DNA from: CAVYHJ01 sp963768165 [NCBI: uncultured bacterium] | GTDB taxonomy: Bacteria; UBP4; UBA4092 | Reading direction: 5' to 3' | Assembly (NCBI GenBank): GCA_963768165.1 | Contig: CAVYHJ010000003.1 | Span: forward strand, 496,001 to 560,000 | DNA: 64,000 nt | Shown: in pieces, positions 19,976-63,795 of the stretch | Layout: every line of letters begins with the position of its first letter | Numbering within the stretch: the first letter of the stretch is position 1 | The notes under the pieces: generated by a model | Told to the model about the DNA's origin: nothing | What the model saw: only the letters and a program-made list of their open reading frames with translations | Databases searched by the model: none | Translations under genes and position numbers: made by a program

Positions 19976-20175
19976 AAAAAAGAACGGTTCTCCGCCGTAA
20001 TGCCGTTGGGTCCATTTTTTGAACCGTTCAAACAATAAGATGGGAACCGTGCAGATTACTTCGCGCGTCCCACATCACAAGCGGGCATGCATCCGGTAAT
20101 CATGACTTAGTTCCCGTTTAAACGATGTTGGTTCAAAATTAACAAACCCGGTCGAACATGACAGGGAACCGCACT
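19976..20175 (-). ncRNA. ssrS: 6S RNA
   Basis: Read on the minus strand, the 5' end (GTGCGGTTCCCTGTCATG) pairs with the 3' end (CATTACGGCGGAGAACCG) to form the closing stem, and a run of seven T follows. The 5' bubble strand has ATGTTCG.CCGGG as in known 6S RNAs. The upper stem has GGGAAC/GTTCCC and GATTAC/GTAATC. The 3' bubble strand contains the small TTGAACGGTTCAA hairpin. The length (~200 bases) is right. 6S RNA binds the housekeeping RNA polymerase as an open-promoter mimic. Confidence 0.82.
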
Positions 20176-26692: not shown

Positions 26693-28153
26693 ATGAAAGT
26701 CTTTTTAGGAAATACACCTTGGAAAAAAGCTGGATTTTACGGTGTACGTGCCGGGTCACGCTGGCCGCATTTTGAACGGGACGGCGCAGGCTATATGCCG
26801 TTTCCATTTTTTCTAGCCTACGGAGCAGCGGTTCTTGAAAAAGACCAACAAGAGGTTCTGTTGGTAGACGGAATCGGTGCAAGAATGTCTACCGAAGAAT
26901 TCCTTTCCAAAATTGTTAAATTCAAGCCTGATCTTGCGGTTCTAGAGGTTGCCACCAGTTCGTTTAATGTGGACATGGCGATGGCCAAAATGATTAAGTC
27001 CTCTCTTCCCAATTGTCAAATTGCCTTTTGTGGAATGCATGTTTTTATGTATGAACCGGAATTCTTGAAAACAACACCGGAAGTAGATTATGTGTTTCAA
27101 GGTGAATTTGAATACACTTTGCGGGAATTGGTGCAGAGACTGGATACCAAAAAAGATTTAGAGGGATGTCTGGGAATGATTTATCGAAAAAATGGCGAAG
27201 TCATCAATAATGGCAAACGTCCTTTAATTGCCAATATAGATGAACTCCCCATGCCCGCGCGCCATTTTACGAATCTCTGTTGGTATCATGACAATCCCGG
27301 TGGTATTCCGGATGTCAGTTTACAAATGCACGCCAGCCGCGGTTGTCCGTTCCAGTGTGTCTTTTGTGCTTGGCCGCAAATCATGTACGGGGATCATTCA
27401 TATCGCGTGCGCAACCCGGTAGCCATTTTGGATGAAATCGAACATTGTGTTAAAGAATATAAAGTCAAGTCTATTTATTTTGATGATGATACCTTTAATA
27501 TCGGGAAACCCCGGTTAGTCAAACTGGCGGAAGAATTCAAAAAACGTAAACTCAATATCCCTTGGGGAGCCATGTCCCGCGCGGATACCTGCGATTTCGA
27601 TACTATGGCCAAATTACGCGATGTGGGCATGGTGGCAGTGAAATATGGTGTGGAATCAGGGGATCAGGGGATTATCACAGATTCAGGGAAACATTTGAAT
27701 TTGGACACATTGCGCAAGGCGTGTAAAAAGACCAAAGAATTGGATATCAAGATTCATCTAACATTTACGTTTGGGTTACCGGGTGAAACGTATGAAACTG
27801 CCCGCAAAACTATAGATTTGGCGATGGAACTTGACCCTGATACACTGCAATTTTCTATTGCGACCCCTTATCCGGGGAGTAAATTCTATGAATTACTCGA
27901 AAAAGAAGGCAAACTCGTCAGCAAGAATTGGGATGAGTATGACGGATATAACCAGGCCGTTACCAAGACCAATGAACTGGGACCGCAGGACCTTGTCAAT
28001 ATTCATCGTGAGGCGGAACGGAAATGGGCGCGCCATCGGGTGAAACGGATTATTAAGAAAAATAACTTTGTGTCGTTAGTAAAAAAGTCTATTCATGACC
28101 CCGTAAAAGCAACTCATCGTCTAAAAGATTTGGTAACTTTGGGACGTTATTAG
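26693..28153 (+). CDS. B12-binding-domain radical SAM protein
   Basis: The 486-residue protein has an N-terminal cobalamin-binding-like Rossmann domain (about residues 40-150; DLAVLEVATSSFNVD, VDYVFQGEFEYTL). It is followed by a radical SAM domain whose 4Fe-4S cluster is held by C218, C222 and C225 (CPFQCVFC). GVESGDQGI and the ELGPQDL region fit the Elp3/MiaB-like SAM core. Such enzymes methylate or rearrange unactivated carbons, often in lipids or secondary metabolites. It opens a glycan gene cluster and probably modifies a lipid or sugar carrier, which is inference. A GAGG site lies 11 bases upstream of the ATG. Confidence 0.85.
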   Translation: MKVFLGNTPWKKAGFYGVRAGSRWPHFERDGAGYMPFPFFLAYGAAVLEKDQQEVLLVDGIGARMSTEEFLSKIVKFKPDLAVLEVATSSFNVDMAMAKMIKSSLPNCQIAFCGMHVFMYEPEFLKTTPEVDYVFQGEFEYTLRELVQRLDTKKDLEGCLGMIYRKNGEVINNGKRPLIANIDELPMPARHFTNLCWYHDNPGGIPDVSLQMHASRGCPFQCVFCAWPQIMYGDHSYRVRNPVAILDEIEHCVKEYKVKSIYFDDDTFNIGKPRLVKLAEEFKKRKLNIPWGAMSRADTCDFDTMAKLRDVGMVAVKYGVESGDQGIITDSGKHLNLDTLRKACKKTKELDIKIHLTFTFGLPGETYETARKTIDLAMELDPDTLQFSIATPYPGSKFYELLEKEGKLVSKNWDEYDGYNQAVTKTNELGPQDLVNIHREAERKWARHRVKRIIKKNNFVSLVKKSIHDPVKATHRLKDLVTLGRY

Positions 28154-28159
28154 TATAAT
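28130..28159 (+). promoter_or_regulatory. Promoter candidate before the first small peptide/GT4 pair
   Basis: TTGGTA (28130-28135) and a perfect TATAAT (28154-28159) are 18 bases apart. The box overlaps the end of the radical SAM gene. The bases after it (TATAATAATACGCCA) resemble those at the second pair (TATAATAATGCCA). Confidence 0.5.
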
Positions 28160-28191
28160 AATACGCCAGATTTTTTACGGAGTTGCTTAAC

Positions 28192-28335
28192 ATGTCGAAA
28201 CACCCTTATCATAGGTTACGTGGAATATTGTTTCTTACAATCTATCTTCTGTATACCAAGGTAATTCTCTTTTTCACCGGGGAACAAGCCATCCAACCTT
28301 CTTTGGCCAGTACTTTCAAGGACATTAAACCGTGA
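28192..28335 (+). CDS. 47-residue single-span membrane peptide, coupled to GT4 copy 1
   Basis: The short frame starts at an ATG preceded by CGGAG and ends with a TGA that overlaps the GTG start of the next gene, so translation is coupled. The peptide has a basic N-terminus (HRLRG), one hydrophobic segment and the phrase LFFTG followed by a short polar tail. A 46-residue homolog occupies the same position before the second glycosyltransferase at 29555. Shared positions include MS, (R/K)L, T.Y, FTG, I.P and D.K. The repeat of the whole arrangement supports a real gene. Function unknown; perhaps a membrane anchor or partner for the glycosyltransferase. Confidence 0.65.
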   Translation: MSKHPYHRLRGILFLTIYLLYTKVILFFTGEQAIQPSLASTFKDIKP

Positions 28336-29501
28336 ATATCCTTTTAGTGACTCAATTTGATATTTACACAATGCCAGGAACAGTCAGAATTGTTGCATTG
28401 TCCCAAGAATTTGCCAAACGAGGTCATCAGGTAACTTTATGTCATTGTCCCGATCCACACCGACGATATAACTTTCCCTTACTCCGAACTTCAGATCCTC
28501 CGGGTGTTGAACTGGTCCCGTTGGAATTTAATAGCAGTGGCTTTTTGAAAAATATTAATCGGGTTAAACCTTTTGCTCAAAAAGCGGATATTATTCATGT
28601 ACAGAAATGCAGAGCCAAAGCTGTCCTTATTGCCTTGTGGTTGGGATTTTTGACAAATAAACCGGTACATTACGACTGGGATGATTTGGAAGTGGGATTT
28701 GTCCCTCAGTGGAGCAAGTCCAAAGCCATTTATAATTTAATCCGTGTCTATGAACTGAAATTACCCAGATTAGTAGACTCGATTTCTTATTCAACGGAAT
28801 ATGTCAAACAATTAGCGTTGGAACGGGGAGCCTCAAATGAATGCATGTTTCATGCGCATGTTGGGGCGGATATTGAAAAATTTAATCCTTCCCGCAAGGG
28901 TACAAAAGTTCGTGAACTTTTCCCGGCGGATTCTAAAATAATTGCTTATATCGGGCAATTGGAAGAAGGCAGTTATGTGGATTTATTAATTCGTGCGACA
29001 CCGCGGATTCTCTCTAAGATTCCCCAAGCTAAATTTTTTATTGTGGGAGGAGGACCGCATCTTCCGCTGTATCAAAAATTAGCCCAGGAGATGGGAACGG
29101 GACATGTCATCCGGTTCACTAATTATATCCCACATGATGCTGTTCCCGATTATATCGCGGCGGCGGACGTCTGCGTGGCTTGTTTTGAAGACAATGCCTT
29201 GACCCAATGCAAAAGCCCGTTGAAAATTGCGGAGTATCTGGCAGCTGGAAAAGTGATCGTGGCATCGGCTGTTGGCGATGTCCCGTTTATGGTAGAAGGA
29301 GCAGGTGTCATTGTCCCCCCCGGTGATACGGAGAAACTGGCGGAGGGAATTATTTCGGTACTCTCTAATCCGGCAGAATTTGAGAAAATGAAAGTTACCG
29401 CAAGGCAAAAAGCGGAGAAAACGTTTAATTGGTCGGTCATTGCCGAACGATTTTTGGATTGTTATCAATCGACCATTGACCGGTTCCATTCCCGGAATTA
29501 G
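28332..29501 (+). CDS. GT4 family glycosyltransferase, copy 1
   Basis: GTG start at 28332 overlaps the stop of the small peptide gene. The 389-residue GT-B enzyme has an N-terminal donor-free lobe (MPGTVRI, GHQVTLC) and a C-terminal nucleotide-sugar lobe with GQLEEGSYVDLL, the E-x7-E region CKSPLKIAEYLAAGKVIVAS and a glycine turn GVIVPPGD. GT4 enzymes retain anomeric configuration and act on lipid-linked acceptors. A close paralog follows at 29692 with the same upstream peptide, so one is a duplicate with possibly different sugar choice. Confidence 0.85.
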   Translation: MNILLVTQFDIYTMPGTVRIVALSQEFAKRGHQVTLCHCPDPHRRYNFPLLRTSDPPGVELVPLEFNSSGFLKNINRVKPFAQKADIIHVQKCRAKAVLIALWLGFLTNKPVHYDWDDLEVGFVPQWSKSKAIYNLIRVYELKLPRLVDSISYSTEYVKQLALERGASNECMFHAHVGADIEKFNPSRKGTKVRELFPADSKIIAYIGQLEEGSYVDLLIRATPRILSKIPQAKFFIVGGGPHLPLYQKLAQEMGTGHVIRFTNYIPHDAVPDYIAAADVCVACFEDNALTQCKSPLKIAEYLAAGKVIVASAVGDVPFMVEGAGVIVPPGDTEKLAEGIISVLSNPAEFEKMKVTARQKAEKTFNWSVIAERFLDCYQSTIDRFHSRN

Positions 29502-29537
29502 ATCTGCTGTAGTTTAATCTCTCCGCGGGTTGTGGGT

Positions 29538-29543
29538 TATAAT
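29538..29543 (+). promoter_or_regulatory. -10 box before the second small peptide/GT4 pair
   Basis: A perfect TATAAT lies 11 bases before the ATG at 29555 and no clear Shine-Dalgarno follows it. No good -35 is visible. If it is used, the mRNA starts a few bases before the ATG. Confidence 0.4.
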
Positions 29544-29554
29544 AATGCCACTAT

Positions 29555-29695
29555 ATGTCTAACCGTCGTTCTCGTAAATTGCCGCGTTTACTCTATGTGA
29601 CTGCCTATACGGTGGTCTGTCAAATTTTACTGGTCTTTACCGGCAAAAAGATCATTAACCCGCTCTCTACTCTTTTTGGGGATAAAAAATCGTGA
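29555..29695 (+). CDS. 46-residue single-span membrane peptide, coupled to GT4 copy 2
   Basis: Homolog of the peptide at 28192: basic N-terminus (MSNRRSRKLPR), one hydrophobic segment (LLYVTAYTVVCQILLVF), then FTG and a short tail. Its TGA overlaps the GTG of the glycosyltransferase gene at 29692 exactly as in the first pair. A TATAAT lies 11 bases upstream. The conservation of both the peptide and its overlap argues that the two genes work together. Function unknown. Confidence 0.65.
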   Translation: MSNRRSRKLPRLLYVTAYTVVCQILLVFTGKKIINPLSTLFGDKKS

Positions 29696-30852
29696 ACATT
29701 TTAATGCTGAATCGCTTTGATATTTATTCCCTTCCCGGCACGGTTCGCATGGTGGAACTCTCCCAACAATTTGTGAAAAAAGGACATCAAGTGACGCTCT
29801 GCTATTATCCCAATGAAGAGCGCAGAAAGTTGTTGCCGTTATTGCGGGACAGTGACCCTATCGGAGTGAAGACTATCAAGTTGAGTACCAATAAGAAAGC
29901 TTTTTTTAAAAACTCGGGTACCATCCGTGAACTCGCCCGCTCCGTCGATATTATTCATTTTCAAAAATGTTTCCCTGAAACCGCGCTGGTTGCCTTATGG
30001 ACTTCATATTTGGAAAAAAAACCTCTGCATTATGACTGGGATGATTTGGAAATGGCCATTGTACCCGAATGGACCAAGTCTAAAGTGATTTATCATATCG
30101 TTAAAAAATATGAGGAATGGCTGCCAAGTATGGTGGATTCGGTTTCTTATTCAACCCGGTATGTATCAGAGATGGCGATAGAAAGAGGCAGCGACCCCAA
30201 TTATTTGATTCCCGCTCCTGTCGGCGCGGATATCTCAAGGTTTAATCCCTTAAATTCAGGTGAGCGTATTAAAAAGCAATTCGCCAATCCGTTGGTGGTG
30301 TATATCGGTCAACTGGAAGGCGGGAGTTACGTGGATTTATTTTTGCAGGCGGCTCAGCAGGTGATTAAAAAGAACCCCAATATAAAATTTCTTGTGGTAG
30401 GAGGCGGACATCGTTTACCCGCGTTACAAGATATGGCGCGAAATCTGGGTTTGGAATCCTGTGTTACTTTCACCAATTATGTTCCCCATGACACCATCCC
30501 GGAATATGTCGCTGCCGCCGATGTTTGCGTGGCGTGTTTTGAAGATAACGAAATCACCCGGTGCAAAAGCCCGCTGAAAATTGCCGAATATCTGGCAGCG
30601 GGGAAACCAATTGTGGCATCGGGAGTAGGGGATGTCCCGCGGATGGTGGATGGTGCAGGAATTGTTGTTCCTCCCGGTAATCCGTCAAAACTGGCGGAAG
30701 GAATTCTTACTATTTTACAGAATCCATCGAATCTGGAAGACATGAAAAAAGCTGCCCGCCGTCAAGCCGAAACGATTTATAATTGGTCGGTTATCGCAGA
30801 CCGGTTTTTAGATTGTTATCAAAAGACGATTTCCAGTTATCAGGGTCAATAA
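29692..30852 (+). CDS. GT4 family glycosyltransferase, copy 2
   Basis: GTG start overlapping the small peptide stop. The 386-residue enzyme is highly similar to the copy at 28332 throughout: MNIL.LNRFDIY, HYDWDDLEM, GADISRFNP, YIGQLEGGSYVDLF, CKSPLKIAEYLAAGKPIVAS and GIVVPPGN. It has the same GT-B layout and no signal peptide, so it acts on the cytoplasmic side of the membrane. It is followed four bases later by a GT2 gene. It probably adds the next sugar of a surface glycan. Confidence 0.85.
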   Translation: MNILMLNRFDIYSLPGTVRMVELSQQFVKKGHQVTLCYYPNEERRKLLPLLRDSDPIGVKTIKLSTNKKAFFKNSGTIRELARSVDIIHFQKCFPETALVALWTSYLEKKPLHYDWDDLEMAIVPEWTKSKVIYHIVKKYEEWLPSMVDSVSYSTRYVSEMAIERGSDPNYLIPAPVGADISRFNPLNSGERIKKQFANPLVVYIGQLEGGSYVDLFLQAAQQVIKKNPNIKFLVVGGGHRLPALQDMARNLGLESCVTFTNYVPHDTIPEYVAAADVCVACFEDNEITRCKSPLKIAEYLAAGKPIVASGVGDVPRMVDGAGIVVPPGNPSKLAEGILTILQNPSNLEDMKKAARRQAETIYNWSVIADRFLDCYQKTISSYQGQ

Positions 30853-30855
30853 TCA

Positions 30856-31695
30856 ATGCCGGATGTCTCCCTTTATATCCCCTGTTATAATGCCTCGAAA
30901 TATATTGAGAAATGTTTATCTAGTATCTTGGCACAAACCTATCCCATCCAGGAAATCCTTATTGTAGATGACGGGTCAACCGATGACACAGTAGAGGTTG
31001 TTAAGAAATTTCCGAGTATTCAAATCGTGAAACATCCCGAAAATCGTGGACTGGCTGCCGCCCGCAATACCGGGATTCGAGAACTTAAGTTTGAATTTAT
31101 TGCCAATATTGATTCGGATTGTGTGGCGGAAAAGGACTGGTTGGAACAATTAATGAAAAACATGACTGAAAACAATATCGCCGGAGTGGGTGGAAAGCTT
31201 GTTGAAACCAACCGTTCAACAATCCCCGATTATTGGCGAAGGGTACATATGAAACAACATTGGGGAGAAGATCGGGTCATCAATCCCCAATGGCTTTTTG
31301 GACACAGTTCGGTTTTTCGAAAAAATGCCTTGGAATCGGTCAATGGGTACCTGGAAAAGTTTCGTACCAATTACGAAGACTTGGATTTATCTCGTCGTTT
31401 GCGGGAAAAGGACTATACTATAGTATATGAACCCCAGGCTATTGTTAACCACTTGCGGAACGATACCGCGCTCTCGGTTTTAAATACTCGCTGGCGATGG
31501 ACGGCACTCGGTGTCCACGGTCCGGTAACCATACTGGAAGTCATCAAAAACCTTGGACGGAATTTCGGTCGTTCTCTAAAATACATGGGGCAGGATATAA
31601 AAAATGACCGATTTTCTTTACTGGGGCTGGATTTTGCGTTAGGATTCTATTCAGGATATAAAGATTTACGGAGTTTGTTATGTCGTCAGTCATAG
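30856..31695 (+). CDS. GT2 family glycosyltransferase
   Basis: The 279-residue GT-A enzyme has the opening VSLYIPCYNASKYI, the UDP-binding DDGSTDDT and a DxD-like motif IDSDC. ENRGLAAARNTGI and NYEDLDLSRRLREKGY-like text (NYEDLDLSRRLREKDY) follow, with the catalytic Asp of ED. No membrane segment is evident, apart from a hydrophobic C-terminal stretch. It inverts configuration when adding a sugar. It starts four bases after the GT4 gene and overlaps the next gene by 16 bases, so the cluster is one operon. Confidence 0.85.
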   Translation: MPDVSLYIPCYNASKYIEKCLSSILAQTYPIQEILIVDDGSTDDTVEVVKKFPSIQIVKHPENRGLAAARNTGIRELKFEFIANIDSDCVAEKDWLEQLMKNMTENNIAGVGGKLVETNRSTIPDYWRRVHMKQHWGEDRVINPQWLFGHSSVFRKNALESVNGYLEKFRTNYEDLDLSRRLREKDYTIVYEPQAIVNHLRNDTALSVLNTRWRWTALGVHGPVTILEVIKNLGRNFGRSLKYMGQDIKNDRFSLLGLDFALGFYSGYKDLRSLLCRQS

Positions 31696-32831
31696 AAGCA
31701 GTTCCACATGAAAGTCCCTATCAACGTTCAACGTGCTCCATGTTCCATTTACCGATTGACAGGTTAACGGTGACTGGAGTCATTGAACGGGTGGAAGAAT
31801 TTATCCGTTCCCGCAAACCTCATCAAATCGCCTATCTCAACGCCCATTGTATCAACCGAGCATTTGAAGATAAAGAATATATGAAGATTATTCAACAATC
31901 CGATTTGGTCTACCCCGACGGGATGGGTGTCGTCTGGGCTTCGCATTTAACACATAGTCCCTTGCCGGAACGGGTGAACATAGGAGATTTCCTATTTGAC
32001 CTTTGTCGTCTCGCTGAAAAAAAGAAGTATCGAATTTATTTTTTAGGTTCCAGTCCGGGTGTGGCGGAACGGGCGGTTCAAGCGGTATTGGAACAATGTC
32101 CCGCTATGGAAATCGCGGGATATAATCATGGATACTTTACACCCGGTGAAGAAAAAGCTATCATAGCCGACATAGCCAAATCACGGGCGGATATATTGCT
32201 GGTTGGATTCGGTGTACCGGATCAGGAAAAATGGATTCATAAGAATCTTGATAAACTGAAAGTCCCGGTGGCGTGGGGCGTCGGTGCCTTATTTGAATAT
32301 TATTCCGGCAAAGTAAGCAGGGCACCCTTCTGGATGCGGTCTCATGGTCTGGAATGGCTTTACCGCCTCGTCCTTGAACCCAGCAGGCTGTGGAAACGAT
32401 ACTTAATAGGAAATGTACTTTTTATCATGCGTGTAATCACGTTGGTCATTTTGGATATTTTAACGGCGGCGGCGTCTTGGTTTGCCGCGTACTGGATTCG
32501 ATATCAATTACCCGGACTTTTTGGGAAACATCCAATTAATGATATTATCACCTATCTTTATGCCTTCCCGGTTATTATTGCGCTTTGGATTTTCTGTTCC
32601 GCCTGGTATGGTCTTTATCGCCGGAATAAGACTTTTTCGGAATTTGGAGAATTGCTGGCGATTTCCAAAGCCGCGGTTTTAGCCTTGCTCATTTCTATGG
32701 CTGTAGCATTCCTTCTGAAAAGCTGGGATTTGGGTCGCTCTATTATTTTCATGTCCGGCGGTCTCAATTTCATCCTGCTCATTATTACTCGCCAGCTCAG
32801 CCATCTCTTTGGTGGAGATAAAAAGAACTAA
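31680..32831 (+). CDS. WecG/TagA (GT26) glycosyltransferase fused to a four-span membrane domain
   Basis: Residues 20-225 are a GT26 domain that transfers N-acetylmannosamine-type sugars to a lipid-linked acceptor: YLNAHCINRAF, SDLVYPDGMGVVWAS, RVNIGDFLFD, YFLGSSPGVAERA and VGFGVPDQEKWI. From about residue 240 to 383 there are four hydrophobic segments with YGLYRR and FSEFGELLAISKAAVLALL. They resemble the N-terminal membrane half of polyprenyl-phosphate sugar-1-phosphate transferases (WbaP type), but the catalytic half is absent. A ribosome site CGGAG precedes ATG at 31680. The fusion would tether the enzyme at the membrane. Confidence 0.8.
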   Translation: MSSVIEAVPHESPYQRSTCSMFHLPIDRLTVTGVIERVEEFIRSRKPHQIAYLNAHCINRAFEDKEYMKIIQQSDLVYPDGMGVVWASHLTHSPLPERVNIGDFLFDLCRLAEKKKYRIYFLGSSPGVAERAVQAVLEQCPAMEIAGYNHGYFTPGEEKAIIADIAKSRADILLVGFGVPDQEKWIHKNLDKLKVPVAWGVGALFEYYSGKVSRAPFWMRSHGLEWLYRLVLEPSRLWKRYLIGNVLFIMRVITLVILDILTAAASWFAAYWIRYQLPGLFGKHPINDIITYLYAFPVIIALWIFCSAWYGLYRRNKTFSEFGELLAISKAAVLALLISMAVAFLLKSWDLGRSIIFMSGGLNFILLIITRQLSHLFGGDKKN

Positions 32832-52700: not shown

Positions 52701-54704
52701 ATGACTAACTTAATAACATCTTTGGGAGGACCGGTATATTTTATTGCCGAATTAGTAGCGTTTTTAGCTGGTGTTATTGCTATATTTGAATACCTAACGA
52801 GGAGATTTAACCTCCAAATTCCATTTAAAAAGTCTACATTCACATCAGAAGACCTTTATAAGGAATATCAGAAGGCGACTAAAGATGAAGAAATATGGAT
52901 TCAAACAGGTACTTGGCCAGTATTCCTTGAATATGAATCTTGTTTTATTGGTACAGATGGTTCGGAATCACAAAGGATATTTATTATAGGACCGGTAGAG
53001 AAATTCTATACATTACCAGGTGTGCTGTGGCGGTTAATGATTAAAAATACAATTGAAAATGACCCTCTAAGGAAAATGAATTTATATCATATTTCAGAAA
53101 TTCCGTCAATAGTTAAATTCATACTTCGCGGCGATAGATTTTATGAAGCAGTCGGGAAAAAAAGAGGTGTCACAAGCTATAAAATAAAGGATAACATTAA
53201 CTCGGCTGGTATACAGCAACTAAAAGACACATTATTAAATGCAATATATATTGATGGGGAAGATGCACTACTTAAAATCTATAAGATGGTCGAGGGATTA
53301 CTAGGGGCAAACGAAAGAATACCAATCGAACAGTTTATTTCAAGAATAATTACTGATTATCGGAACTCTTGTCAAGAATATAAGCATGTCATTAGTAAAG
53401 AACATAAGAAAATATCCAAAAAGGAATTAGAAGAACTTTTTCAAAAGACTTTACCTCTATTGGTAAAATATATAGAAAAGAATTACGGTATTAGAACGAT
53501 TATTATTTCAACCGACGGAAGAAATGTTAATAAAGCTTCTAGTCCGAGAGCAAGATTTGAAGAAGATATAGATAGATTAAATCATAATGAAGTTACACCA
53601 ATTAGAAGACTCCCTTCAATGAGAATTGTTATAAATGGGTCATGTAATTTAAATTGTATTTATTGTCCTTTTGGTAACGAAAGTTATTCTCTAACACAAA
53701 TTTATTTAGAGGCATCCACTTTAAAAAGTCTTCTTGATATATCATATAAAAAGGGGTTTAGAGAATTTGCTATTACTGGTGGAGAACCAAGATTTCATCC
53801 TAAATTTATAGATATTTTGGATATAGTAAGGGGATTTCTGAATGATAACAAAAAAGATTCTACACTTTCAATTTCTATTAATACTAATGCCTATGACGTT
53901 GGAACACATTTTACCTTTGAAAATCTTTTGTCTGAATTAGAACTTTTCAAGGATCGGATTGACTTTAAGGTTAGTCTTGATGGACTAAGGAATAGATTTA
54001 GTGAAAAAATAAATCTTGATGAAGAAGATAAAATATTTCTAAAAAAGTACCCTAAGATTGATCATAGTGATAAAATTCTCGAAAATGTAAGAAAAGCTTT
54101 GGCGAAGCAGTATAGAATTGGATTAAATTTCGTCCTTACTCAATCAAACAGAACATTTTTAAAGGAAACGCTGGAATGCTCATATGGCTTGTATAAAGAC
54201 CATAAAGATAAAGATCCTAAAAACTTATATTTTAAAATTCTTGATCTTAATTGGTATCATGATATTGGGAATAGACATAAGGAACCTGATAGCTATTATT
54301 TTTGGCGTAAAGAATATGTATCGCCATTACAATATTATGATGATGAAAGACTAAAGGATATATTTGGAATACCTAAGCATATTCTAAATATTAATTTTGG
54401 TGTTCCTATGGTTGAAGTTGATAAAGAAGGGTTTAAAATAAGGATAAAAGATTCCTCCTTAGGAACACATTATTGTAAGAAATACTGTATTTCATGCCTT
54501 TTTTATATAAAAAATTTATGCCAAGAAGGAGTTTACCAGCCTTGGATAACGCCTGAAGGAAATCTTAAAATGTGTTATCACCGCCCCGATATTATAAAGT
54601 CTGAGCTTCTCAATGAAGATGTTCTGGGTCACCCTGAAATATTGGATGAGTTTAAAAATCATTTTTTAGGCGAGTTAAAACACGGTCAGCGACCACGTTT
54701 ATAA
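52701..54704 (+). CDS. Membrane-anchored radical SAM protein with a novel N-terminal region
   Basis: AAGAAGGAAA lies before ATG at 52701. The 667-residue protein has one membrane segment (residues 10-33), a ~260-residue region of unknown fold (EEIWIQTGTWPVFLEYESCF, RIFIIGPVEKFYTLPGVLWRLMI) and a basic helical link. A radical SAM domain follows whose cluster is held by C315, C319 and C322 (CNLNCIYC), with ITGGEPRFHP. The C-terminal Cys set (YCKKYCISC, LCQEG, MCYHRP) is like a second cluster site. The family resembles MoaA-like or SPASM/twitch enzymes but I do not recognise it as a whole. The gene is AT-rich compared with neighbours, suggesting transfer. Confidence 0.75.
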   Translation: MTNLITSLGGPVYFIAELVAFLAGVIAIFEYLTRRFNLQIPFKKSTFTSEDLYKEYQKATKDEEIWIQTGTWPVFLEYESCFIGTDGSESQRIFIIGPVEKFYTLPGVLWRLMIKNTIENDPLRKMNLYHISEIPSIVKFILRGDRFYEAVGKKRGVTSYKIKDNINSAGIQQLKDTLLNAIYIDGEDALLKIYKMVEGLLGANERIPIEQFISRIITDYRNSCQEYKHVISKEHKKISKKELEELFQKTLPLLVKYIEKNYGIRTIIISTDGRNVNKASSPRARFEEDIDRLNHNEVTPIRRLPSMRIVINGSCNLNCIYCPFGNESYSLTQIYLEASTLKSLLDISYKKGFREFAITGGEPRFHPKFIDILDIVRGFLNDNKKDSTLSISINTNAYDVGTHFTFENLLSELELFKDRIDFKVSLDGLRNRFSEKINLDEEDKIFLKKYPKIDHSDKILENVRKALAKQYRIGLNFVLTQSNRTFLKETLECSYGLYKDHKDKDPKNLYFKILDLNWYHDIGNRHKEPDSYYFWRKEYVSPLQYYDDERLKDIFGIPKHILNINFGVPMVEVDKEGFKIRIKDSSLGTHYCKKYCISCLFYIKNLCQEGVYQPWITPEGNLKMCYHRPDIIKSELLNEDVLGHPEILDEFKNHFLGELKHGQRPRL

Positions 54705-62590: not shown

Positions 62591-63795
62591 TGAGACCTCT
62601 GAAAAAGTATTGTTTTTGTTTTACAAGAGTGATAAATAAAAAAAGAGAAGGTTGAGGAGGAGGAAAGAAGCGGTTGGGAGAGTCCAACGACCTTTGGAGG
62701 AGTCTCCAAAGAGGAGAATACACTGGTATTCTTGTCCTTTTCGGATTAAGGAGACACAACTCCCCTGCGTTTGACCATCCGGACCAGATTCTCGGCCATG
62801 ACCGCCATCTCCAAGAATTGTTTCACTCGTTGTAATCCGCTGACCGTCATCTTGCGTACCCCGCGCCAGAGTTTGAGACACCCGAAATACGATTCAATCA
62901 GATACCTTTTCTTCTTTTTCCAGCGCTCATTATGTCGTACATCTTCAGGTTTCTGGACTCGGGCATGGCGCTGATTCCGTAAAATCCCATCCACGATCCC
63001 ATGGCGTCCCAACCACTCCCGATTCCGTTTCGCATCAAATCCCCGGTCCGCCAGCACGATCCCTTCCTCTCCGGTCAATACTTGCGGCAGTAAAAATACA
63101 TCATGAATATTCGCAGGCACGACTAACGGTCGTCCCCCCAACGTCGTCTTGGGATCATAGCGTAAACACACATTATATCCATGCACGATCTTCAAGGGTC
63201 CTCGTTTCCCGGTTCCTGCTTCCGGTTCTAAGGGTTTCCCTTCTGGATCTGTGGCCTCTTTCTTATGATGACTTTCCACGAGGGTCGCATCCACAATCAC
63301 CACACTCCCTTTCTTTAAGGACACCTTCTGCCGTCCTAACTGTTCTTCAAACCAGCCCCACAACTCGTTCTCCACTCCCGCCTGGCGAATTCTCTCCCGA
63401 AACTTCACCAGCGTCGTATCATCCGGCACTTCCTCCCCAAAAGCAATCCCCACAAACTCCCGAAAGGACAACCGATCCGTAACCTCTTCAACTACCCGCA
63501 CATCTGACAGATTATAAATCCTTTCCAACAACCATATCCGAAATAATACCTCCGGCGCATACCCCGGACGTCCCTGATCCTTCGAATACATTCCTTCCAA
63601 CCGTTGATGCAGTCCCTTCCAATCCAGCATCCCTTTCAGTTTCTCCAAAAACTTCCCGGTCTTCGTATCCAACTCCATCCATCCTTGCAGTAAGTGTCCT
63701 TGTCCTTTTTCTTCCCCGATCATGTGTCTCTCCTTTTAGGTTTTCCTTCCCATACTCTCAATCCCAACAAAAGGTAGACTTTTTCAGAGGTCTCA
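62591..63795. mobile_element. IS5-family insertion sequence, 1205 bp
   Basis: Perfect 18-bp terminal inverted repeats TGAGACCTCTGAAAAAGT (62591-62608) and its complement (63778-63795) bound one intact transposase gene. No clear target duplication is seen. Near-perfect outer inverted repeats at 62576-62588 and 63798-63810 flank it. Confidence 0.88.
62746..63723 (-). CDS. IS5-family transposase
   Basis: AAGGAGA lies before ATG at 63723. The 325-residue protein has the DUF772 N-terminal domain (RPGYAPEVLFRIWLLERIY, LSFREFVGI, DDTTLVKFRERI) and the DDE catalytic core: Asp in IVDATLVESH, Asp in VLADRGFDAKRNREWL and Glu in RYLIESYFGCLK. The frame is intact, so the element may be active. It belongs to the IS5 superfamily; the exact subgroup cannot be set from here. 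Confidence 0.92.
   Translation of the reverse strand: MIGEEKGQGHLLQGWMELDTKTGKFLEKLKGMLDWKGLHQRLEGMYSKDQGRPGYAPEVLFRIWLLERIYNLSDVRVVEEVTDRLSFREFVGIAFGEEVPDDTTLVKFRERIRQAGVENELWGWFEEQLGRQKVSLKKGSVVIVDATLVESHHKKEATDPEGKPLEPEAGTGKRGPLKIVHGYNVCLRYDPKTTLGGRPLVVPANIHDVFLLPQVLTGEEGIVLADRGFDAKRNREWLGRHGIVDGILRNQRHARVQKPEDVRHNERWKKKKRYLIESYFGCLKLWRGVRKMTVSGLQRVKQFLEMAVMAENLVRMVKRRGVVSP

What the first reader, a model, noticed from the sequence alone, without database searches (positions are those of the whole stretch)
28192..30852. Twin modules of a ~46-residue membrane peptide overlapped with a GT4 glycosyltransferase
Two small frames (28192-28335 and 29555-29695) share length, membrane topology, an FTG motif and a TGA/GTG overlap with two paralogous glycosyltransferases. 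Conservation of both peptide and coupling after duplication argues for a functional two-part enzyme, e.g. an obligate membrane anchor or activator. The frames are below common gene-finder cut-offs and may be missed widely.
Basis: partly seen in the sequence, partly recalled or inferred. Interest (0 to 1): 0.68.

Follow-up and report, generated by a model that had tools for sequence, protein, structure and literature searches.

The report
Membrane micropeptide paired with sugar transferase
Two tiny membrane-protein genes, short enough to be skipped by gene finders, each overlap the start of a sugar-transferring enzyme gene, and many related enzymes in other uncultured bacteria and archaea keep a similar membrane piece next to them, so it is probably a working part of that enzyme system.

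Summary
In detail: two homologous 47/46-residue one-helix peptides each overlap by 4 nt one of two 56%-identical GT4 glycosyltransferases. UBP4 locus L001 has the same gene order with one homologous, likewise overlapping peptide. In Omnitrophota and DPANN archaea, relatives of these GTs are often preceded by a ~39-residue TM tail ending in FPG[GSN], free or as the C-terminus of a radical-SAM (rarely another) protein. The tail matched no Pfam or NCBIfam model in the examples scanned and is under purifying selection. A tail profile gave 34 hits at E<=0.001 in 516 genomes: 32 share a contig with the GT (all 30 below 1e-10); 15 of the 32 were not used to build the profile. The two-part-unit idea is strengthened; 'obligate anchor of the GT' is not shown. 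Some family members lack a tail, a read-through AlphaFold model did not place the FPG end, and the radical-SAM fusions suggest the C-terminus may face outward. Homology of the window peptides to the FPG tails is suggestive only. Best reading: a detachable membrane-tether module bringing this GT4, and often a radical-SAM enzyme, to the membrane site of lipid-linked glycan assembly.

The parts
26693..28153 (+). B12-binding radical SAM protein (HpnJ-like), upstream neighbour; counterpart in L001 68% identical
   Evidence: Pfam, NCBIfam (HpnJ 275.2 bits, below its 577.6 cut-off), synteny
28192..28335 (+). peptide 1, 47 aa, basic N-end, one hydrophobic helix, FTG motif; no Pfam or NCBIfam match
28332..29501 (+). 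GT4-1, HYDWDD-family glycosyltransferase, GTG start overlapping peptide 1 stop by 4 nt
29555..29695 (+). peptide 2, 46 aa, homologous to peptide 1 and to the L001 peptide
29692..30852 (+). GT4-2, paralogue of GT4-1, GTG start overlapping peptide 2 stop; GT-B fold model pLDDT 96.5
30856..31695 (+). GT2 glycosyltransferase, same order in L001 (62%)
31680..32831 (+). WecG/TagA/CpsF glycosyltransferase with C-terminal hydrophobic region (by eye); points to a lipid-linked glycan cluster

Best explanation
The peptide is a genuine protein: the small membrane-embedded half of a two-gene module with a HYDWDD-family GT4. It is made just before the GT by translational coupling. It tethers the otherwise soluble GT-B enzyme, and in many relatives a radical-SAM enzyme fused to or encoded beside it, at the inner membrane where a lipid-linked glycan is built. 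The same kind of module occurs as a free peptide or as the C-terminal tail of an upstream radical-SAM protein. In the window the peptide+GT module is present twice, within a radical-SAM / GT4 / GT2 / WecG-type operon. SHOWN: real coding sequence, conservation, gene overlap or close spacing, free/fused alternation, linkage to the GT. INFERRED: translational coupling as such, membrane location (hydropathy only), binding to the GT, lipid-linked substrate, and common ancestry of the window-type and FPG-type peptides.
For: Short TM ORF ending at -25..+10 nt of the GT start in 22 of 75 target GTs and a long TM-tailed ORF in 18 of 75, against 6 and 11 of 419 other genes. Tail profile in 237 Omnitrophota genomes: 26 genomes, one hit each; the GT in 38 of 237, including all 26. 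In 279 genomes of an archaeal phylum: GT in 5, all with a tail; a sixth strong tail precedes a GT cut by the contig end. Of these 32 tails, 15 were not in the profile's training set. dN/dS 0.05-0.47 in the 18 of 30 closest pairs where it could be computed. Tail and GT distances correlate (29 loci, Mantel r 0.57, 0 of 5000 permutations). Seven tails 62 nt to 3.5 kb from the GT keep FPG[NS] (six) or FPAQ (one), so the motif is not just a Shine-Dalgarno artefact. Upstream neighbours of free tails vary (radical SAM, GT4-like, flippase, Wzt ATPase, lipase-like, epimerase) while the GT is constant. The window order matches UBP4 L001 with an extra module.
Against: No contact shown: in the read-through tail+GT model of L009 the helix is modelled but the FPGG stretch (34-39) has pLDDT below 50 (pTM 0.85, against 0.93 for the window GT alone, a different protein). 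If cytosolic radical-SAM domains precede a single spanning helix, the C-terminus would be outside, away from a cytosolic GT. 27 of 76 GTs lack a recognised tail; 2 of 35 assessable Omnitrophota GT genomes lack one, and G092 has a second GT without one. 19 carriers are radical-SAM proteins (13 by the tail profile, 6 with diverged tails), so the main partner might be those. The window peptides are only weakly related to the FPG tails (HMM E 3.7; hhalign probability 55.7; pairwise scores with L113 and L029 tails within shuffles), and tail-less lineages lie between them in the tree.
Confidence: 0.5

Rival explanations
1. The tail belongs functionally to the radical-SAM side: it anchors the B12 radical-SAM enzyme (fused, or recruited in trans) and merely travels in an operon with the GT.
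For: 19 fused carriers in the first 80 loci are radical-SAM proteins; an ORF with CxxxCxxC lies within 3.5 kb of the GT in 57 of 80 loci against 4 and 0 for permuted motifs; in the window the upstream gene is a B12 radical-SAM protein.
Against: In some archaeal loci the tail follows an epimerase (L002) or a Wzt-type ATPase (L080), or no CxxxCxxC ORF was found within 3.5 kb (L011, L077, L080; L011 and L080 are short contigs), yet the GT is there; all 30 tail hits below 1e-10 were in genomes with the GT.
Confidence: 0.2
2. The C-terminus has its own job on the outer face or in the lipid phase (binding a polyprenyl carrier, a flippase, or acting like the DltX tail), and the helix mainly delivers it there.
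For: The most conserved part of the tail is the C-terminal FPG; radical-SAM fusions put the N-side in the cytosol (inference); DltX/PatA is a published case of a C-terminal motif found on a free microprotein or fused (PMC12148441, passages).
Against: Window peptides lack FPG; no conserved nucleophile (only P is invariant in A3); topology not measured.
Confidence: 0.13
3. A leader ORF whose only role is translational coupling or regulation of the GT.
For: 4-nt overlaps in the window and L001; tight spacing in many loci; FPGG codons often contain a Shine-Dalgarno-like GGAGG.
Against: dN/dS below 0.5 where computable; same tail fused to other proteins; retained 62 nt to about 4.5 kb from the GT in some genomes.
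Confidence: 0.06
4. Window peptides are an independent (convergent) acquisition, not related to FPG tails; only the arrangement is alike. (This can hold together with the best explanation.)
For: Weak profile similarity; pairwise scores with FPG tails within the range of shuffles; tail-less GT lineages between the two groups; different motif (TGKKIIxP-like versus KKxRxxxIFPG).
Against: Same gene position, topology and length; hhalign E 1.2e-4 over the helix; the second UBP4 genome has an intermediate-looking GKKRIIPKS peptide 133 nt upstream, itself only weakly similar to peptide 2 and not significantly to peptide 1 (65 and 1497 of 5000 block shuffles).
Confidence: 0.4

Closest known systems
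Alg13/Alg14 (EpsE/EpsF) split glycosyltransferases
   Same: A catalytic GT plus a separate membrane-anchor subunit, found split or fused (PMC4973528, passages read).
   Different: Alg13 and Alg14 correspond to two halves of one MurG-like GT; here the GT is a complete GT-B enzyme and the partner is a ~40-residue helix.
Human DPM1 with DPM2/DPM3 versus yeast Dpm with its own C-terminal helix
   Same: Membrane helix supplied by separate subunits or fused (PMC4973528, passage).
   Different: GT2 superfamily, eukaryotic; the fused form is on the GT itself, whereas the fused tails seen here are on the upstream protein.
DltX microprotein / PatA C-terminal motif
   Same: Small membrane protein with a conserved C-terminal motif that is free in one system and fused in others (PMC12148441, passages read).
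   Different: DltX works with MBOAT/SGNH acyltransferases and carries an FxYxxF acyl-shuttle motif, absent here.
DUF5989 small TM proteins
   Same: ~50-residue TM peptide; one lies in L025 in the same neighbourhood and shares a TG...P...F pattern (by eye) with the window peptides.
   Different: Pfam finds DUF5989 in the L025 peptide (E 1e-13) but not in the window peptides or the two FPG tails scanned.
MshA/BshA/PimA-type GT4 enzymes
   Same: Same fold: MshA 3c4q Z 39.4, rmsd 3.0 over 357 residues.
   Different: 16-20% identity in the structural alignments; no HYDWDDxE motif or peptide partner known for them (recalled).

Membership tests
GT4 / GT-B glycosyltransferases | Match to Glycos_transf_1 above the curated cut-off | tested here: met
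   88.5 and 91.4 bits against 26.4
GT4 / GT-B glycosyltransferases | GT-B fold | tested here: met
   model of GT4-2 pLDDT 96.5; MshA, BshA and PimA among the best matches
GT4 / GT-B glycosyltransferases | Strict EX7E motif (recalled; not taken here as defining) | tested here: not met
   The second Glu (E301, KSPLKIxEY) is invariant in the 23 rows, but the position eight before it is C293 in the window and C, S or A, not Glu, in the other rows; the GT4 label rests on profile and fold
Alg14 / EpsE membrane-anchor subunits | Anchor is the N-terminal half of a MurG-like GT | tested here: not met
   47/46 aa peptides without a Pfam match at the cut-off; the partner GT has both domains
DltX | C-terminal FxYxxF motif | tested here: not met
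   Read directly from the sequences
DUF5989 (PF19451) | Match to the Pfam model | tested here: not met
   No DUF5989 match at E up to 1 for the window peptides; the L025 control peptide does match
FPG-tail family defined here (alignment A3) | Window peptides match the tail profile | tested here: inconclusive
   HMM E 3.7 for peptide 2; hhalign probability 55.7, E 1.2e-4
Two-part enzyme | Physical association or functional dependence | not testable with these tools
   Only an indirect read-through model, without placement of the motif

The most novel reading that the evidence does not exclude
A detachable, undescribed membrane module is shared across bacteria and DPANN archaea. It is passed between free peptides and radical-SAM proteins, always with one GT4 family, and builds a membrane-bound radical-SAM/glycosyltransferase assembly line for an unknown lipid-linked glycan, with the conserved C-terminal FPG end acting as a specific lipid-carrier or partner recognition element.
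Probability: 0.2. Interest if true: 0.82.

Novelty: new variant of a known kind. Interest (0 to 1): 0.62.

Why it matters
It points to a family of ~40-residue membrane proteins, without a Pfam or NCBIfam model in the examples scanned, linked to one GT4 family in uncultured bacteria and archaea. It gives two-gene modules small enough to express and test. It also ties radical-SAM enzymes to glycan assembly: a GT4-radical-SAM fusion exists (L005, and apparently L067).

Tried and rejected
Shine-Dalgarno artefact for the FPGG motif: plausible for the last GG (TTY CCN GGA GGN stop), rejected for FPG because tails far from the GT keep it. Chance ORFs: rejected. DUF5989 membership: no match. A Death_MADD hit for the L001 peptide (E 7e-4, 20 bits, below the 27-bit cut-off) and a DUF6219 hit for peptide 2 (E 0.18) were judged chance. 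The read-through AlphaFold model gave no support for docking. A first alignment for it (A7) misplaced tail-only rows and was not folded. The plasmid search gave only places of 22-27% identity in the 20 rows listed of 443 records. Paper searches: no listed title or abstract start describes this peptide-GT pair; HYDWDD and DUF5989 returned 0 papers. Duplication date unresolved: GT4-1 joins L001 with weak support (94/36), while GT4-2 and peptide 2 are more similar to L001. A TATAATAAT box before both peptides is not beyond chance (17 of 100 shuffles) and was not seen before the L001 peptide. In G246 (UBP4) the peptide-pair profile found nothing significant (best 0.179, elsewhere); its candidate peptide rests on position and a weak match to peptide 2. 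Two archaeal tail hits (G369 E 5.7e-5, an out-of-frame ORF inside a radical-SAM-like gene; G259 E 6e-4, with an internal stop) had no HYDWDD GT in their ~3 kb stretches and are told here as hits against strict linkage, judged chance. HYDWDD as a family mark is partly by construction: the scan used it as one of two search patterns. Rows dropped: L060 (cut by the contig end) and loci with an incomplete GT start were left out of the 76-row alignment and tree; L024, L063 and L072 have a hydrophobic stretch near the end of the upstream ORF that I did not count as a tail.

Full report
WHAT IS THERE. The window holds, on the + strand, a B12 radical-SAM gene (26693-28153), peptide 1 (28192-28335), GT4-1 (28332-29501), peptide 2 (29555-29695), GT4-2 (29692-30852), a GT2 glycosyltransferase (30856-31695) and a WecG-type glycosyltransferase (31680-32831). 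Each peptide stop (TGA) overlaps the GTG start of the following GT by 4 nt. The GTs are 56% identical, the peptides 35%. The peptide similarity is real: SW score 70, reached in 0 of 5000 shuffles, also when the hydrophobic block was kept; 12 of 16 identical residues are encoded by different codons. The peptides have no Pfam match at the cut-off and no NCBIfam match.

NEAREST RELATIVE. UBP4 locus L001 has the same order with one peptide+GT module instead of two: radical SAM 68%, GT4 54% and 63%, GT2 62%, WecG 65% identical to the window. Its 50-aa peptide overlaps its GT by 4 nt (ATGA), is homologous to both window peptides, and was the only significant hit of the peptide-pair profile in that genome (E 3.8e-8, next 0.58). 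The other UBP4 genome held has a 38-aa TM peptide ending GKKRIIPKS 133 nt before its GT. It is not found by the profile and is weakly similar to peptide 2 but not significantly to peptide 1 (65 and 1497 of 5000 block shuffles). The window's own organism is unknown; UBP4-like is an inference.

A WIDER FAMILY. A scan of one genome for each of 84,980 species with the GT pair found 110 loci and returned the best 80, 49 of them titled Omnitrophota/Omnitrophica, with Woesearchaeota/Nanoarchaeota and others. All rows of a 76-row alignment share HYDWDD, partly by construction, as the scan used that motif as one of two patterns. Upstream of these GTs lies, in many loci, a ~39-aa TM peptide ending in FPG[GSN], or a long protein ending in the same tail. 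In 37 of 80 loci a tail profile scores below 1e-4; 30 of these 37 trained the profile. A control less open to circularity: a short TM ORF ending at the start in 22 of 75 GTs and a long TM-tailed ORF in 18 of 75, against 6 and 11 of 419 other genes of the same loci; one of the 6 control hits is itself an FPG tail. The two FPG tails scanned against Pfam, and the L029 tail together with the L060 tail, matched no family.

WHOLE-GENOME TEST. In 237 Omnitrophota genomes the tail profile hits 26 at E<=0.001, once each, 24 of them below 1e-10; the GT profile hits 38, including all 26, each on the same contig as the tail. Of the 12 other GT genomes, 7 have a more diverged TM tail at the same place by hydropathy and eye (G092, G108, G121, G127, G153, G157, G238; G092 also has a second GT without one), 3 have the GT at a contig end (G077, G082, G122; for G122) and 2 have none (G170, G209). 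In 279 genomes of an archaeal phylum there were 8 tail hits at E<=0.001: 5 in the 5 GT genomes; a sixth (G459) directly before a GT truncated by its contig end; and two weaker ones (5.7e-5, 6e-4) without a GT nearby. So 32 of 34 hits, and 30 of 30 below 1e-10, share a contig with the GT. Because the training tails were picked next to GTs, the fair count is the 15 tails not in the training set (10 Omnitrophota: G032, G106, G114, G136, G161, G165, G182, G187, G220, G240; 5 archaeal: G004, G005, G309, G459, G489; some, such as G182 and G459, are close to trained rows). All 15 lie on a contig with the GT, from adjacent to about 4.5 kb away (coordinates).

CODING AND CO-EVOLUTION. dN/dS was 0.05-0.47 in the 18 of the 30 closest tail pairs where it could be computed; in the other 12 dS could not be. 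Tail and GT distances correlate across 29 loci (Mantel r 0.57, 0 of 5000), as expected for linked inheritance; this alone does not prove interaction.

FREE OR FUSED. In the first 80 loci, 19 carriers are radical-SAM proteins: 13 with a tail found by the profile (L017, L023, L027, L037, L042, L044, L046, L047, L054, L056, L060, L064, L070) and 6 with diverged tails (L015, L032, L038, L040, L048, L079) (Pfam). Three are GT4-like: L075 above the Pfam cut-off, L062 just below it, L067 weak; the L062 and L075 tails lack FPG, and the L067 tail has FPG but low hydropathy. Three are unassigned (L005, L021, L025; L025 without a Pfam match, the other two carriers not scanned). On the GT tree the radical-SAM-fused state needs 10 changes, at least 6 by well-supported branches (L027 and L060 were not in that tree), so the join has been made or broken repeatedly. 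Upstream neighbours of free tails differ. An ORF with CxxxCxxC lies near the GT in 57 of 80 loci against 4 and 0 for permuted motifs, and L005 has GT4 and radical SAM in one chain.

MECHANISM. The GT is a confident GT-B enzyme closest to MshA/BshA/PimA-type GT4s. The simplest reading is a membrane tether made in step with the GT, holding it and often a radical-SAM enzyme at the site of lipid-linked glycan assembly. Precedents for split or fused membrane subunits are Alg13/Alg14 and DPM (PMC4973528) and DltX/PatA (PMC12148441); of both papers I read passages only. Two results temper this. A read-through tail+GT model of L009, with few paired rows and a forced two-residue linker, did not place the FPGG end (pLDDT below 50). 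And if cytosolic radical-SAM domains precede a single spanning helix, the FPG end would face outward unless the helix lies in the membrane plane; topology is not settled, because both flanks are basic.

LIMITS. Window-type and FPG-type peptides are not proven to be one family: hhalign probability 55.7, HMM E 3.7, pairwise scores within shuffles, and tail-less GT lineages separate them (midpoint root, for drawing only). 27 of 76 GTs in the tree have no recognised tail, none of them for want of upstream sequence. Functional statements are inference.

Noticed in passing
window 28154-28163 and 29538-29547: TATAATAATR occurs only twice in the window, just before each peptide; a promoter-like TTGGTA-18-TATAAT lies at 28130-28159. 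Not beyond chance (17 of 100 shuffles).
   Followed up: partly
L005:667-3180 and L067 from 6001: HYDWDD GT4 continued in one reading frame by a C-terminal region; Pfam shows radical SAM/SPASM for L005, and L067's extension looks alike by eye (C-terminal CxxxCDD, not run through Pfam).
   Followed up: partly
L021, L026, L140 GT C-termini: GTs with C-terminal extensions of about 110-135 residues (524, 499, 512 aa in all), unidentified.
   Followed up: no
L025 upstream of 9635: A DUF5989 small TM peptide (Pfam E 1e-13) before another gene, with a TG...P...F pattern like the window peptides.
   Followed up: partly
L007, L018, L030, L034, L058: Upstream proteins with DEHCDHCDNHQ near the C-terminus; the L007 one matches radical SAM in Pfam, the others were not scanned.
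   Followed up: partly
window 19985-20170 (-): 6S RNA by Rfam (79.5 bits).
   Followed up: no
window 62746-63723 (-): Transposase-like ORF (looks IS5-type by eye).
   Followed up: no
window 52701-54704 (+): 667-aa protein with a central CNLNCIYC radical-SAM-like motif (by eye).
   Followed up: no
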